Shown here: positions 28,682 to 33,624 of the stretch, in pieces
Layout: each line of letters opens with the position of its first letter
Numbering within the stretch: position 1 is the first letter of the stretch
Assembly (NCBI GenBank): GCA_963169235.1
Contig: CAUJCX010000037.1
Coordinates: forward strand, 1 to 33,624
Reading direction: 5' to 3'
DNA length: 33,624 bases
Source of the DNA: Actinomycetota bacterium
GTDB lineage: Bacteria > Actinomycetota > Thermoleophilia > Miltoncostaeales > Miltoncostaeaceae
Position numbers and translations under genes: made by a program
Notes under the pieces: generated by a model
Databases searched by the model: none
The model's input: the letters and a program-made list of their open reading frames with translations, nothing else
Told to the model about the DNA's origin: nothing

Positions 28682-28824
28682 GCCCGACCGTGTTCGCCAC
28701 CGGCACGACGCCTGAGCCAACACGTACACAACGGGAAGTGGTGTCAGGACGGCTCTCAACCGAGTCCCGCCCGCCCGCATCCCACCTGCTTCGGCAGGTT
28801 CAGAGCTCCGACCGGAGCGGCACG
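28682..28824 (+). ncRNA. Structured 5' leader with a sequestered ribosome site
   Basis: The leader contains ACCTGC-TTCG-GCAGGT (28784-28799), a six-pair stem with a stable UUCG loop. Five bases later comes GCTCC-GACC-GGAGC (28805-28818). The second hairpin buries GGAG, which is 7 bases before the GTG at 28825. Upstream, GGAC(GG)CTC can pair with GAGTCC (28747-28766). Third-position GC across this stretch is about 70%, well below that of real genes here, so it is not coding. This arrangement is that of a translational switch; no known riboswitch class fits. Confidence 0.4.
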
Positions 28825-29349
28825 GTGGGGTTTCCTCCTGGGCGTCGCACGCGTGCGGCGCTGGCCGTCGCCACGGCCGGCCTGGCGCTGGCGCTGGCCG
28901 CATGCGGCGGTGACGGCGACGCGGCGGGCGTGGATCCCGCGGCCAGCCCGGACGTGCCCGCGATCGCGGCTGCTCCCGTGGCGCCCGCGCCCTCTGGACC
29001 GCTGACGCAGGGCGACGTCGTCACCCCCGGCAAGAAGACCCCCGCCGGCGTGAAGGCGGCGCTCGGCAAGCGCCCCGTGGTGCTGGCGTTCGTCTACGGC
29101 CGCTCGCGCGACGAGCAGGCCGTGCGCGCGGCCGTGGGCAAGGTGCGCGCGAGCTCCACCGGCACGGGCGTCGCGTTCTTCGTATACGACGTCTCGAAGC
29201 GCGGCGGGTTCGGCGACCTCACTACCCGCGTCGCGGTCACCGAGACCCCGGCCGTGGTCGTGATCGGCGCCGACGGTCGCGTGGCCAACCTGTGGACCGG
29301 CCTGGTGGACGCCGAGATGCTGACCCAGTCGGTGGCGGCCGCGAAGTAG
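28825..29349 (+). CDS. Thioredoxin-fold lipoprotein without the CxxC site
   Basis: 174 aa from the GTG at 28825, which has GGAG at 7 bases and starts a normal lipoprotein signal (MGFPPGRRTRAALAV... lipobox LALAAC). An upstream GTG at 28690 would add 45 residues of poor coding quality. After a proline/alanine linker, VKAALGKRPVVLAFVYGRSRDEQAVRAAVGKVR, TGVAFFVYDVSK and VTETPAVVVIGADGRVANLWTG follow the thioredoxin strand order, including the cis-proline (ETPAVVV). Where thioredoxins have WCxxC, this protein has YGRSRDE, so it cannot do dithiol chemistry; it may bind a partner or substrate outside the membrane. Confidence 0.75.
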   Translation: MGFPPGRRTRAALAVATAGLALALAACGGDGDAAGVDPAASPDVPAIAAAPVAPAPSGPLTQGDVVTPGKKTPAGVKAALGKRPVVLAFVYGRSRDEQAVRAAVGKVRASSTGTGVAFFVYDVSKRGGFGDLTTRVAVTETPAVVVIGADGRVANLWTGLVDAEMLTQSVAAAK

Positions 29350-29401: not shown

Positions 29402-30895
29402 GTGAGCGGCTACACCGCACAGGTGATGCGTCACCTCGTCGACCCGGTCGGCGCGGGCCCCTTGGACGCGGCGGACGCCGTGGGCGAGTCCGGCGCCGTC
29501 GCGTGCGGCGACCAGGTGCGCATCCAGCTGTCCATCCGCGGCCGGCGGGTCACCGCCGCCCGCTTCCTGGCGTTCGGGTGCCCCGCCGCCACCGCGGCCG
29601 CCAGCCTGGCCTGCGAGCGGCTCAGCGGGGCGACGCTCGACGAGGGGCTGTCGCTGTCGGCCACCGACCTCGACCGGGGCCTCGGGGGTTTGGGCGCCGC
29701 CCGCCGCCACGGCGCCGACCTGGTGGCCGACGCGGTGGCCCGGGCGTTCGAGGGGTGGTTCTCGGCGCGCCTCGGCGACGCCGGCATCCCCCTGCGCCGC
29801 GACCGCATCGCGGTGGCGATGTCGGGCGGGGTCGACTCGGCTGTCGCCGCGCTGCTGCTGCGCGATGCGGGCTGGGACGTGGTGGGCGTGACCATGCGGC
29901 TGTGGCACGATCCCGCCGCCGCGGCCGCCGAGCGCTCGTGCTGCTCGCCCGAGACCATGCGCATGGCCCGCGAGACGTCCCACGCGCTCGGCATCCCCCA
30001 CGTCGCCATCGACGCGGCCGACGCGTTCCGCCAGGGCGTGGTGGACGGGTTCATCGAGGGCTACGCCAAGGGGCTCACGCCCAACCCGTGCGTCGTGTGC
30101 AACGGCTCGGTGCGGTTCCGCCTGCTGGCCCAGGCGGCCGCGCTGGTGGGGGCCCGCGGCCTGGCCACCGGCCACTACGCCCGCGTGGTCCGCACGGGCG
30201 GGACGGCCACCATCGCCGCCGCCCGCGACGCCGCCAAGGACCAGAGCTACATGCTGGCGATGCTGCCGCCGGCCGTCGTCGCGCGCCTGCAGTTCCCCCT
30301 GGGCGACCTCACGAAGACCGAGGTGCGCGAGCGTGCCCGCTGCGCGTCGCTGGTGGCCGCCGAGGCGGTGGAGAGCCAGGAGGTGTGCTTCGTCGGCCAA
30401 GGCGGCTACGTGCCCTTCCTCGAGCGTAACGCGGGCCTGGCCGACCGCCCCGGCGACATCGTCGACGCCGACGGCGTGCCGGTGGGGCGCCACCACGGCT
30501 ACTGGCGGTTCACGGTGGGGCAGCGCAAGGGCATCGGCGTCGCCGGCCCTGAGCCCCTGTACGTGCTGGGCACCGACGCCGCCGCCAACCGCGTCACCGT
30601 CGGCCCGCGGACGGCGCTGGCGTCGCGGCGCGTCGAGCTGGTCGACGTGGTGTGTCACGCCCCGCTCGACCCCGGCCACGCGTTCGAGCTGCGCGTGCGG
30701 TACCGTGGTCGTCCCCTGGCGGGGCGTTCGCTCACGCCCACCGACGACGCGTCGGCCGTGATCGAGTTGGACGACGCCACCGACGGCGTCGCGCCCGGTC
30801 AGACCGCCGTGGTGTACCAGGACGGCCGGGTGATCGCGGCGGGTACCATCGCGACGTCACACTCCCCACACGAGGTGTCCTGTGGACTGGTCTGA
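29402..30895 (+). CDS. mnmA: NifU/IscU-like scaffold domain fused to tRNA 2-thiouridylase MnmA
   Basis: 497 aa; ordinary MnmA is about 360. Residues 1-120 are a NifU_N/IscU-type domain: YTAQVMRHLVDP, VACGDQVRIQLSI (Cys35, Asp37), FGCPAATAAASLACE (Cys60), TLDEGL, and RHGADLVADAV where IscU has HCS, so the third cysteine is Gly104 after His103. Residues 133-497 are MnmA: P-loop AMSGGVDSAVAAL, CCS at 180-182, TPNPCVVCN (Cys230, Cys233), GHYARV, DQSYML, SQEVCFV with catalytic-type Cys329, and the C-terminal beta domain. It thiolates U34 of tRNAs for Glu, Gln and Lys. The fusion suggests direct sulfur or Fe-S supply to the enzyme. Recent work describes some MnmA proteins as Fe-S dependent. The stop overlaps the next gene by 14 bases. 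Confidence 0.93.
   Translation: MSGYTAQVMRHLVDPVGAGPLDAADAVGESGAVACGDQVRIQLSIRGRRVTAARFLAFGCPAATAAASLACERLSGATLDEGLSLSATDLDRGLGGLGAARRHGADLVADAVARAFEGWFSARLGDAGIPLRRDRIAVAMSGGVDSAVAALLLRDAGWDVVGVTMRLWHDPAAAAAERSCCSPETMRMARETSHALGIPHVAIDAADAFRQGVVDGFIEGYAKGLTPNPCVVCNGSVRFRLLAQAAALVGARGLATGHYARVVRTGGTATIAAARDAAKDQSYMLAMLPPAVVARLQFPLGDLTKTEVRERARCASLVAAEAVESQEVCFVGQGGYVPFLERNAGLADRPGDIVDADGVPVGRHHGYWRFTVGQRKGIGVAGPEPLYVLGTDAAANRVTVGPRTALASRRVELVDVVCHAPLDPGHAFELRVRYRGRPLAGRSLTPTDDASAVIELDDATDGVAPGQTAVVYQDGRVIAAGTIATSHSPHEVSCGLV
30844..30849 (+). promoter_or_regulatory. Possible internal -10 box before the DUF948-like gene
   Basis: TACCAT in GGGTACCATCGCG, inside the end of mnmA and 32 bases before the GTG at 30882. 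It resembles the box ahead of alaS (GGTACCATC). Confidence 0.3.
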
Positions 30896-31406
30896 GGTTC
30901 TGAAAGCCGCGCTGTCGTTCTTCCTGGTGATCACCGGGCTGGCGCTGGCGTACCTGTTCGTCCGCATGGCCGGGGTGTTCTCGCGTCTCAGCATCACGAT
31001 GGTGCGGGTGACCGACGAGGTGGTGCCGATCCTCAACAAGGGCCAGACCACCATGGACGGCGTCAACCGCGAGATGGACCGCGTCGACGAGATCATGGTG
31101 TCGGCCGTGCACGGCGCGAAGGGCGCCGAGCAGACCATGGTGACGCTGACCAACGCGGTGTCGGCGCCCGTGCGCAAGCTGTCGGGCCTCGCGGCCGGCC
31201 TCAAGGAGGCGGGGCAGACGTTCCAGGCCCGTCGCCGCATCGACGCGATGGAGCGGGGCACCGCCCCCGGCCCCGGCGCCACGGCACCGCCCCCGCCCGC
31301 GCCGGCTGCGCCCATGGCGTCCGCGCCCACGCCCCCGGCGGGTCGGGGCTTCCGCACGACGGGGCAGGAAGTGCCGCCTCGGACCGTGCCCGGGTCGGAG
31401 GGCTAG
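30882..31406 (+). CDS. DUF948-like single-pass membrane protein
   Basis: 174 aa, GTG start with GAGG 7 bases ahead, overlapping mnmA by 14 bases. One N-terminal membrane segment (VLKAALSFFLVITGLALAYLFVRMA) is followed by a long helical, probably coiled-coil region (LSITMVRVTDEVVPILNKGQ, VNREMDRVDEIMVSAVHGAKG) and a proline/alanine-rich tail. This matches DUF948-type proteins encoded before alaS in many actinobacteria. Function unknown; the coiled coil would face one side of the membrane. Confidence 0.75.
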   Translation: MDWSEVLKAALSFFLVITGLALAYLFVRMAGVFSRLSITMVRVTDEVVPILNKGQTTMDGVNREMDRVDEIMVSAVHGAKGAEQTMVTLTNAVSAPVRKLSGLAAGLKEAGQTFQARRRIDAMERGTAPGPGATAPPPPAPAAPMASAPTPPAGRGFRTTGQEVPPRTVPGSEG

Positions 31407-31689: not shown

Positions 31690-33624
31690 ATGAACTCGCA
31701 TCAGATCCGTCGGGCATACCTCGACTACTTCATCCGCAACGGCCACCGCGAGGTGCCGTCGGCGTCGCTCGTGCCGTTCGACGACGACCCGTCCGTGCTG
31801 CTGACCATCGCCGGCATGCAGCCGCTGAAGGCGTACTTCATGGGCACCGAGGACCCGCCCGCCCCGCGGCTGACCTCGTGCCAGAAGTGCTTCCGCACGG
31901 GTGACATCGACCAGATCGGGCACACCGCCCGGCACCTCACGTTCTTCGAGATGCTCGGCAACTTCTCGCTGGGCGACTACTTCAAGAAGGAGGCCATCCG
32001 GTTCGCCTGGGAGGTCTCCACCGAGGTCTACCAGCTCGACCCGGAGCAGATCTGGATCACGGTGTTCGAGGGCATGGACGGCGTGCCGGCCGACGACGAG
32101 GCCGTCGAGTACTGGGTCGAGCACGGCATGCCCCGCGAGCGCATCCAGCGCCTCGGCGAGGCCGACAACTTCTGGAAGGCGGGCCCCACCGGCCCGTGCG
32201 GGCCCAACACCGAGCTGTACGTCGATCGCGGGCCGTCGTTCGGTCCGGACGGGGGCCCCGTCGTGGGCGGCGACCGGTTCCTGGAGTACTGGAACCTGGT
32301 CTTCATGCAGTACGAGCGCGACCAGGACGGGCGCCTGAGCGACCTGCCCGCGCAGAACATCGACACGGGGGCGGGCCTCGAGCGCATCGCGGCCATCCTG
32401 CAGGACAAGGCGTCGGTGTTCGAGACCGACGCGTTCTGGCCGCTGATCGAGTGGGGCCAGCAGGCCGCGGGCGTCGGCTACGGCAAGGTGGAGCGGGTCG
32501 ACCGCAGCCTGCGCGTGCTGGCCGACCACGGCCGCGCGATGACGTTCTTGGCCACGGACGGCGTGCGCCCGTCCAACGAGGGTCGCGGGTTCGTGCTGCG
32601 CCGCATCACGCGGCGGGCCGTGTCGGAGGCCGCCCACCTGGGCCTCGAGCCCACGGCGGTGCTGGGCCTGGTGGATGTGGTCGCCGAGCGCTGGGGCGAC
32701 GCGTACCCCAGCCTGCGCGAGCGGCGCGAGGACGTGCGCGACACGCTGGGCGCGGAGGCGGAGCAGTTCGCCCGCACGCTGCAGGCGGGCCGGGCCCTCC
32801 TGGCCGACGTGGTCGAGCGCTCCGCGGCGACGGGTCAGGTGTCGGGCGACGACGCGTTCCGCCTGCACGACACGTACGGCTTCCCGCTGGACCTCACCCA
32901 GGAGGCGGCCAGCGACGCGGGCCTCACCGTCGACACCGACGGGTTCGAGGCGCTGATGGCCGACCAGCGAGAGCGCTCCCGGGCGGGCTCCGCCCAGGCC
33001 GGTCAGACCAGTCTGGCCGTGCGCGCCGCGGGCCTCGCCCGCCGGCAGCGCACCCGCTTCGTCGGCTACGACGAGCTGGCGGCCGACGCCGAGGTGGTGG
33101 GCGTGGAGGACCTCGAGGACGGCGAGCAGCTGGTGCGCCTCGACACGTCCCCGTTCTACGCGCAGGGCGGCGGCCAGGTGAGTGACGCCGGCCGGCTGGT
33201 GGCCGACGACGGCGTGCGCGACGTGCGCGACGTGCTGCGCGTCGGCGGCGACCAGGTGCTGCGGGTGGCCGGCGCTCCGCTGGCCGTGGGCACCCGCGTG
33301 CGGGCCGAGGTGGACGGCGCGGCGCGCGCGGCGACCCAGGGGCACCACACGGCCACGCACATCCTGCACTGGGCGCTGCGCGACCAGCTGGGCACCACGG
33401 TGCAGCAGGCGGGCTCGTACGTGGGGCCCGACAAGCTGCGCTTCGACGTCACCCACCGGGGCAAGATCCCGCCCGACGTGCTTGCCGAGGTCGAGCGCAT
33501 GGTGAACGCGCGCATCGACGAGGACGCCCCCGTGACGTGGAGCGAGATGCCCAAGGCCGACGCCGACGCCCGCGGCGCCATCGGCCTGTTCGGCGAGAAG
33601 TACGGCGACGTGGTGCGCGTGGTG
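31690..33624 (+). CDS. alaS: Alanyl-tRNA synthetase (3' end outside window)
   Basis: 645 codons to the window edge, still open; full AlaRS is about 870 aa. The catalytic domain starts MNSHQIRRAYLDYF and includes PSASLVP, TIAGMQPLKAYFMG, SCQKCFRTGDID, HLTFFEMLGNFSLGDYFKKEAI and GPTGPCGPNTELY. NIDTGAGLERI and GRGFVLRRITRRAV follow, then the editing domain with FYAQGGGQVSD and the zinc motif HHTATHILH. The second zinc motif and the C-terminal domain would lie beyond the edge. It charges tRNA-Ala and clears mischarged Ser or Gly. Confidence 0.97.
   Translation, partial: MNSHQIRRAYLDYFIRNGHREVPSASLVPFDDDPSVLLTIAGMQPLKAYFMGTEDPPAPRLTSCQKCFRTGDIDQIGHTARHLTFFEMLGNFSLGDYFKKEAIRFAWEVSTEVYQLDPEQIWITVFEGMDGVPADDEAVEYWVEHGMPRERIQRLGEADNFWKAGPTGPCGPNTELYVDRGPSFGPDGGPVVGGDRFLEYWNLVFMQYERDQDGRLSDLPAQNIDTGAGLERIAAILQDKASVFETDAFWPLIEWGQQAAGVGYGKVERVDRSLRVLADHGRAMTFLATDGVRPSNEGRGFVLRRITRRAVSEAAHLGLEPTAVLGLVDVVAERWGDAYPSLRERREDVRDTLGAEAEQFARTLQAGRALLADVVERSAATGQVSGDDAFRLHDTYGFPLDLTQEAASDAGLTVDTDGFEALMADQRERSRAGSAQAGQTSLAVRAAGLARRQRTRFVGYDELAADAEVVGVEDLEDGEQLVRLDTSPFYAQGGGQVSDAGRLVADDGVRDVRDVLRVGGDQVLRVAGAPLAVGTRVRAEVDGAARAATQGHHTATHILHWALRDQLGTTVQQAGSYVGPDKLRFDVTHRGKIPPDVLAEVERMVNARIDEDAPVTWSEMPKADADARGAIGLFGEKYGDVVRVV

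What the first reader, a model, noticed from the sequence alone, without database searches (positions are those of the whole stretch)
29402..30895. Fe-S scaffold (NifU/IscU-type) domain fused to MnmA, with the third cysteine ligand lost
Seen: one uninterrupted frame encodes a NifU_N-like domain with ACGD and FGC cysteines, followed by a complete MnmA with P-loop and all expected cysteines (CCS, CxxC, catalytic CF). The third ligand cysteine of IscU is replaced by glycine (RHGAD for the usual HCS), leaving Cys35, Asp37, Cys60 and His103. Known: MnmA normally receives sulfur from IscS directly or through a relay, and some MnmA and related thiolases carry a 4Fe-4S cluster. Inference: the fused domain is no longer a general scaffold. 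It either delivers persulfide or a cluster only to its own MnmA, or keeps a labile two-cysteine site completed by MnmA cysteines such as the CCS pair.
Basis: partly seen in the sequence, partly recalled or inferred. Interest (0 to 1): 0.75.

Follow-up and report, generated by a model that had tools for sequence, protein, structure and literature searches.

The report
Retired iron-sulfur scaffold fused to MnmA
In a group of poorly studied actinobacteria the enzyme that puts sulfur into the tRNA wobble base carries, as part of the same protein, an old iron-sulfur scaffold that has lost exactly the residue used to build clusters but keeps its metal-binding site, which suggests it was turned into a private docking or sulfur-delivery module for that enzyme.

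Summary
Window 29402-30895(+) is one open frame (497 aa): an IscU/NifU domain (residues 4-117) joined to a complete C-type MnmA (135-483), with Cys35, Asp37, Cys60 and His103 kept and the third scaffold cysteine replaced by Gly104. It is neither an artefact nor peculiar to this genome: the fusion is class-wide and recurs in other families of the phylum. In 90 fused domains found by whole-domain search, none keeps all five scaffold ligands; 14 of 14 unfused NifU proteins of the same phylum do. Two exclusive four-ligand solutions occur: Cys-Asp-Cys-His (78) and Cys-Asp-Cys-Cys (8). The first is the metal tetrad of free ISCU; the lost cysteine is the persulfide acceptor. Each genome tested has another general system: SUF, or a separate intact NifU where SUF is missing. 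So 'no longer a general scaffold' is well supported. A site completed by the MnmA CC pair is not: that pair is invariant in unfused MnmA too. The best mechanism is cis docking and sulfur hand-over by a metal-holding module (inferred, about 0.4). Cluster loading and a mere docking relic remain open. I found no published description. New variant of a known kind.

The parts
29402..30895 (+). fused gene nifU_N::mnmA, 497 aa, GTG start, TGA stop
   Evidence: same frame in many genomes of the class
29411..29752 (+). IscU/NifU_N-like domain, residues 4-117
   Evidence: Pfam PF01592 83 bits; fold match to A. fulgidus IscU 4eb5_C, Z 22.4
29504..29506 (+). Cys35 = E. coli IscU Cys37, ISCU2 Cys69; first Cys, the position that accepts persulfide in SufU
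   Evidence: codon read
29510..29512 (+). Asp37 = E. coli IscU Asp39, ISCU2 Asp71
29579..29581 (+). Cys60 = E. coli IscU Cys63, ISCU2 Cys95
29708..29710 (+). His103 = E. coli IscU His105, ISCU2 His137
29711..29713 (+). Gly104 in place of the third Cys (E. coli IscU Cys106, ISCU2 Cys138)
   Evidence: Ala or Gly in all fused proteins of the main groups that keep the His
29804..30850 (+). C-type MnmA, residues 135-483
   Evidence: NF001138 350 bits; fold match 2hma Z 41.2
29822..29839 (+). PP-loop SGGVDS, residues 141-146
   Evidence: invariant in 50 fused proteins
29939..29944 (+). Cys180-Cys181, CC motif of C-type MnmA
   Evidence: invariant in fused and unfused MnmA except three f16 proteins
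30089..30100 (+). Cys230-x-x-Cys233, putative cluster/catalytic motif
30386..30388 (+). Cys329, catalytic Cys (E. coli Cys199 equivalent)
30882..31406 (+). DUF948-like gene overlapping the 3' end of the fused gene; conserved neighbour
   Evidence: 30 bits, below Pfam cut-off
31690..33624 (+). alaS (runs off the window); conserved neighbour, same place in the unfused operon
28690..29349 (+). putative lipoprotein upstream; conserved neighbour in f1, f4 and the unfused f2 operon
   Evidence: no Pfam match above cut-off

Best explanation
The gene descends from an iscR-iscS-nifU-mnmA-alaS type operon in which nifU was joined to mnmA. Fe-S assembly for the cell is done elsewhere (SUF, or a separate intact NifU). 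The fused domain lost the fifth scaffold ligand, the cysteine that takes persulfide during cluster building, and kept a full four-ligand metal site (Cys35-Asp37-Cys60-His103 here). Most likely it works as a built-in, metal-holding docking and sulfur-relay module: a cysteine desulfurase docks on it, the first cysteine (Cys35) is released from the metal and takes the persulfide as in SufU, and the sulfur passes in cis to Cys329 (or the CxxC-C centre) of the attached MnmA, which thiolates U34. Shown: fusion, ligand pattern, operon ancestry, separate general Fe-S systems, selection on the domain. Inferred: metal identity, docking partner, Cys35 as acceptor, direction of sulfur flow.
For: Ligands in fused domains found by whole-domain search: 78 CDCH[AG], 8 CDCxC, 0 CDCHC; unfused NifU of the phylum 14/14 CDCHC. 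Within-genome control: G004, G016, G046 (f4) and G006 (f6) carry both an intact separate NifU and a fused copy that has lost ligands. SufB/D present in G000, G007 and in the f3, f5, f7, f9 and f23 genomes tested; not found in G004 and G006, which keep the separate NifU. Operon ancestry: f2 has IscR-IscS-NifU-MnmA-DUF948-AlaS unfused; f11 has IscS-[NifU:MnmA]-DUF948-AlaS; f1 and f4 have [NifU:MnmA]-DUF948-AlaS; f23 has an IscS with its PLP lysine directly upstream of the fusion. C69/D71/C95/H137 is the metal tetrad of free ISCU2 and Cys138 the persulfide acceptor (PMC11021402). In SufU the first Cys accepts persulfide after a zinc-ligand swap (PMC10216065). The HscA-binding LPPVK motif is lost. 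pTM 0.92 suggests a defined domain arrangement.
Against: No measurement of metal or sulfur transfer. In f6 and f16 the fused domain has lost even the tetrad, and two f4 members (L041, L066) have lost Asp and the third ligand, so metal-dependent relay cannot be the role everywhere. In ISCU2 Cys69 (the Cys35 equivalent) is not required for persulfidation (PMC11021402), so the SufU analogy is needed, yet the domain lacks SufU's last Cys ligand and SufS linkage. The desulfurase that would feed it in the window's family is unknown: the IscS homologue there has lost its PLP lysine.
Confidence: 0.4

Rival explanations
1. Docking relic: the IscU fold is kept only as a handle that brings a cysteine desulfurase (or tRNA) to MnmA, or for stability; its ligands are drifting away and its chemistry is not used.
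For: Stepwise loss: five ligands in unfused, four in most fused, fewer in f6 (second Cys gone), f16 (several gone) and two f4 members, while the fold persists; f3 MnmA may have a shortened cysteine-free remnant (the f3 homology is weak, 10-14 bits). dN/dS of the N domain is somewhat above that of the MnmA half in 8 of 10 pairs.
Against: In the main groups C35, D37 and C60 are almost invariant and a fourth ligand is nearly always kept; 86 of 88 fully readable fused domains found by whole-domain search keep a tetrad. Free drift would not keep exactly four.
Confidence: 0.27
2. Cluster loader: the domain holds or builds a [2Fe-2S] or [4Fe-4S] cluster and passes it to the CxxC-C centre of its own MnmA; a partner cysteine, for example of the lysine-less IscS homologue, supplies the missing ligand.
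For: C-type MnmA of T. thermophilus is a [4Fe-4S] enzyme (PMC8584467). In A. fulgidus an IscS without the PLP lysine gives a cysteine ligand to the cluster on IscU (PMC7585200), and that IscU (4eb5) is the best sequence and fold match to the domain. The window's family has an IscS homologue without that lysine but with its cysteine loop.
Against: The lost Cys is required for cluster synthesis in ISCU2 (PMC11021402). SUF is present for cluster supply. The lysine-less IscS lies next to tusA, not next to the fusion, and f5, f7, f9, f10 genomes with the same HA-type domain showed only SufS-type desulfurases. LPPVK is lost. A cluster requirement of MnmA is itself disputed (PMC11784392).
Confidence: 0.2
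3. Redox or metal sensor: zinc or iron on the domain tunes MnmA activity to oxygen or metal supply.
For: A kept four-ligand site with no obvious donor; an 'oxygen switch' has been suggested for MnmA (PMC11784392).
Against: Nothing specific; no regulatory partner seen.
Confidence: 0.07
4. One reading: Cys35/Cys60 are completed by MnmA cysteines such as the CC pair.
For: The CC pair is invariant in the main fused groups.
Against: It is equally invariant in unfused MnmA of f2, f13, f21, f29, f46, f51, and the domain needs no outside ligand for a tetrahedral site. Distance not testable here.
Confidence: 0.03

Closest known systems
C-type (CC-CxxC-C) MnmA, e.g. Thermus thermophilus MnmA
   Same: PP-loop, CC, CxxC and catalytic Cys all present; NCBIfam equivalog passed; solved MnmA folds superpose over about 350 residues
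   Different: carries an N-terminal IscU-derived domain in the same polypeptide
IscU / NifU_N scaffold (A. fulgidus NifU-1 4eb5, E. coli IscU 3lvl, human ISCU2)
   Same: fold (Z about 20-22), first and second Cys, Asp, His
   Different: third Cys (persulfide acceptor) lost; LPPVK lost; not free-standing
SufU zinc sulfurtransferase (B. subtilis, M. tuberculosis)
   Same: a four-ligand metal site around the same first Cys, Asp and second Cys; idea of a metal-masked acceptor cysteine
   Different: fourth ligand is His, not Cys, in the window and most relatives (Cys in f4, f8, f11, f55); not next to SufS; scores below the SufU equivalog cut-off
A. fulgidus IscS-IscU pair with a lysine-less IscS
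   Same: the window's genome also has an IscS homologue without the PLP lysine but with the Cys loop
   Different: there the IscU keeps all its cysteines; here the IscS homologue is beside tusA, on another contig than the fusion

Membership tests
C-type MnmA (tRNA 2-thiouridine(34) synthase) | curated equivalog score passed | tested here: met
   NF001138 350.4 vs 284 bits
C-type MnmA (tRNA 2-thiouridine(34) synthase) | PP-loop SGGVDS and CC-CxxC-C cysteines | tested here: met
C-type MnmA (tRNA 2-thiouridine(34) synthase) | fold of solved MnmA | tested here: met
   2hma Z 41.2 over 350 residues
C-type MnmA (tRNA 2-thiouridine(34) synthase) | thiolates U34; [4Fe-4S] dependence | not testable with these tools
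   needs enzymology
IscU/NifU Fe-S scaffold | NifU_N sequence family and fold | tested here: met
   PF01592 83 vs 22 bits; 4eb5_C Z 22.4
IscU/NifU Fe-S scaffold | three conserved cysteines plus Asp and His | tested here: not met
   third Cys is Gly104; 0 of 90 fused domains have all five ligands
IscU/NifU Fe-S scaffold | scaffold equivalog cut-offs (NifU_clost, NifU_proper, iscU) | tested here: not met
   78 vs 188, 63 vs 273, 50 vs 192 bits; for NifU_proper partly because only part of that long model is present
IscU/NifU Fe-S scaffold | LPPVK chaperone motif | tested here: not met
   GGLGAARRHG in place of ELPPVKIHCS
SufU sulfurtransferase | Cys-Asp-Cys-Cys zinc tetrad | tested here: not met
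   C35, D37, C60 present, then His103/Gly104; met in f4, f8, f11, f55 relatives
SufU sulfurtransferase | equivalog cut-off TIGR01994 and linkage to SufS | tested here: not met
   39 vs 92.5 bits; a true SufU lies beside SufS elsewhere in the genome, G000:C34
SufU sulfurtransferase | zinc binding, persulfide on first Cys | not testable with these tools
   needs protein

The most novel reading that the evidence does not exclude
A whole branch of actinobacteria feeds tRNA thiolation through an IscU domain that has been rebuilt, in cis, into a metal-masked sulfurtransferase. Fusion freed it from cluster building and led to two mutually exclusive four-ligand sites (Cys2-Asp-His or Cys3-Asp). In the window's family it is served by a separate relay made of an IscS homologue without its PLP lysine and a TusA encoded next to it.
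Probability: 0.17. Interest if true: 0.75.

Novelty: new variant of a known kind. Interest (0 to 1): 0.52.

Why it matters
How MnmA gets its sulfur, by persulfide or through an Fe-S cluster, is disputed (PMC11784392). Here the supply module is physically attached to the enzyme, and nature has made the point mutants: the same fused fold with C-D-C-H, C-D-C-C or no site. Testing three natural variants would show whether the attached domain moves persulfide, moves clusters or only docks the desulfurase. It also shows how a scaffold can lose its assembly role yet keep its metal site.

Tried and rejected
Frameshift or assembly artefact: rejected, same fusion in many independent genomes including cultured ones (Patulibacter minatonensis, P. 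medicamentivorans, Solirubrobacter soli, Svornostia abyssi). Window-specific loss of the third Cys: rejected, clade-wide. Apparent splits in f1 (L030, L031) and the short frame L025: an N run and contig ends, not real. First genome-contig query with a diverse alignment failed; repeated with closer sequences. Those loci were fetched with peptide patterns containing CGD or GC, so their Cys35/Cys60 conservation is partly by construction; the counts quoted use the whole-domain searches. Single origin of the fusion: not rejected (AU p 0.06 for all fused, 0.44 without f16 and f55), not shown either. Distance of Cys35/Cys60 to the MnmA active site: could not be measured, no coordinates returned. Literature: no held paper combines NifU or IscU with MnmA as a fusion (judged from titles and term counts); the key paper on C-type MnmA (Shigi 2020) is not held, so prior mention cannot be excluded. 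f3 remnant: too weak to claim.

Full report
What is there. The frame 29402-30895(+) is open for 497 codons. Its first 117 residues are a NifU_N/IscU domain (Pfam 83 bits, cut-off 22); residues 135-483 are an MnmA that passes the curated equivalog cut-off (350 vs 284 bits). It is the only full MnmA of the genome. AlphaFold2 on 50 fused homologues gives mean pLDDT 93.3 and pTM 0.92; the N domain matches A. fulgidus IscU (4eb5_C, Z 22.4, rmsd 2.1 over 134) and the rest matches 2hma (Z 41.2). No coordinates were returned, so inter-site distances are untested.

Ligands. Against E. coli IscU C37, D39, C63, H105, C106 the window reads C35, D37, C60, H103, G104.

Distribution. A search of 199 genomes of the class with the N domain alone found the ~500 aa fused frame in families f1 (the window's), f4, f5, f7, f9, f10, f11, and later f6 and f8. 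Outside the class, families f23, f16 and f55 have it. Named relatives are Miltoncostaeaceae, Patulibacter, Solirubrobacter, Thermoleophilaceae and Svornostia, so the class is Thermoleophilia (by record titles).

Ligand pattern. Among 90 fused domains found by whole-domain search in groups other than f6 and f16, 78 are C-D-C-H-(A/G), 8 are C-D-C-x-C, two f4 members have lost Asp and the third ligand (L041, L066), and two are incomplete in the alignment (L036 cut by a contig end; L051, whose ORF reads RRSC). None has all five. With the pattern-selected genome-contig loci added there are 132 different sequences, again none with all five. The 14 unfused NifU rows of f2, f4, f6, f29 and f51 all have all five. 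Four genomes carry both kinds: G004, G016, G046 and G006. So loss goes with fusion, not with the organism. The sequences are related, so the counts are not independent trials.

What the kept residues mean. In human ISCU2 the free protein holds metal through Cys69, Asp71, Cys95 and His137; Cys138 is the persulfide acceptor (PMC11021402). The window keeps exactly the first four and lacks exactly the last. In SufU the zinc is held by three cysteines and an Asp, and the first cysteine of the CGD motif accepts persulfide when SufS swaps in a His (PMC10216065). The f4, f8, f11 and f55 fused domains keep a Cys-Asp-Cys-Cys set. Both groups therefore keep a complete four-ligand set while losing the fifth ligand.

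Ancestry. f2 genomes of the same class have IscR-IscS-NifU-MnmA-DUF948-AlaS with all genes separate and all ligands present. f11 has IscS-[NifU:MnmA]-DUF948-AlaS. The window and f4 have [NifU:MnmA]-DUF948-AlaS with the same upstream ORF as f2 but no IscR or IscS. f23 has an IscS with its PLP lysine directly upstream of the fusion. The fusion thus most likely arose inside an isc-mnmA-alaS operon. One f23 genome (L243) has the two halves separated by TAA-TTG with the HA-type domain, either a re-split or an early state. The MnmA tree does not reject one origin (AU p 0.06; 0.44 without f16 and f55).

Who builds clusters. SufB/SufD are present in the window's genome and in the tested f1, f3, f5, f7, f9 and f23 genomes; they were not found in G004 (f4) and G006 (f6), which keep a separate intact NifU. 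The window's genome also has SufS-SufU with an intact Cys-Asp-Cys-Cys SufU. The fused domain is therefore unlikely to be the general scaffold anywhere it was checked. Its LPPVK chaperone motif is gone.

Constraint and decay. dN/dS of the N domain is 0.04-0.27 in ten pairs, mostly slightly above the MnmA half. C35, D37 and C60 are invariant in 50 fused proteins (partly by construction). But in f6 the second Cys is Ser, and in f16 several ligands are gone, while the domain is still recognisable; in f3 a short cysteine-free N-terminal stretch may be a remnant (weak). This fits a role that is metal-dependent in most lineages and can be reduced to docking.

Mechanism. I judge cis docking plus sulfur relay most likely (0.4), docking relic next (0.27), cluster loading third (0.2). 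Facts that separate them cannot be had from sequence. The sulfur source in the window's family is open: SufS is present; a second class-V protein next to tusA has lost the PLP lysine but kept the cysteine loop in all 12 genomes read. A. fulgidus IscS without this lysine lends a cysteine to the cluster on IscU (PMC7585200), which is the best argument for the cluster rival.

Novelty. No held paper was found that describes a NifU/IscU-MnmA fusion, but the library is open-access only and domain databases were not searchable for architectures. The parts are known kinds; the joined protein and the linked loss of the fifth ligand are the new variant.

Noticed in passing
G000:C10:12120-13283 (L116) and L117-L127: An IscS homologue present in most genomes of the window's family; in all 12 read, it keeps the His, Asp and the SPGSAC/SPGSTC cysteine loop but has lost the PLP Schiff-base lysine (SGHK to GGPA, GGTA, SGTP), and a tusA gene follows it directly.
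   Followed up: partly
L151, L152 (G080:C1:1978305-1979456, G046:C27:16259-17410): In f4 another IscS homologue has SGHK changed to SSND, like A. fulgidus IscS, beside a NifU_N protein frame of about 270 aa.
   Followed up: no
L176, L184, L185, L193 (Sedimentibacter, Aminicenantes); L210, L222, L223 (Castellaniella); L212 (Myxococcales); L234 (Dehalococcoidia): Free-standing NifU homologues that lack the first ligand cysteine (PADGD, ALGEV and similar, AAEGD, TRGVT), another and different erosion of the scaffold site.
   Followed up: no
L250-L253, L263, L264 (f16): Fused NifU-MnmA in which several or nearly all scaffold ligands are gone although the domain is kept; three of six also lack the MnmA CC pair.
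   Followed up: partly
L257, L258 (f3): MnmA with a short cysteine-free N-terminal extension that may be a shrunken remnant of the NifU domain (10-14 bits only).
   Followed up: partly
28690-29349 (+): 219-aa putative lipoprotein ORF, conserved upstream neighbour of the fusion in f1 and f4 and of the unfused operon in f2; no Pfam match above cut-off.
   Followed up: partly
30882-30895: The DUF948-like gene starts inside the end of the fused gene, suggesting translational coupling; the order fused gene-DUF948-alaS is conserved in f1, f4 and f11.
   Followed up: partly
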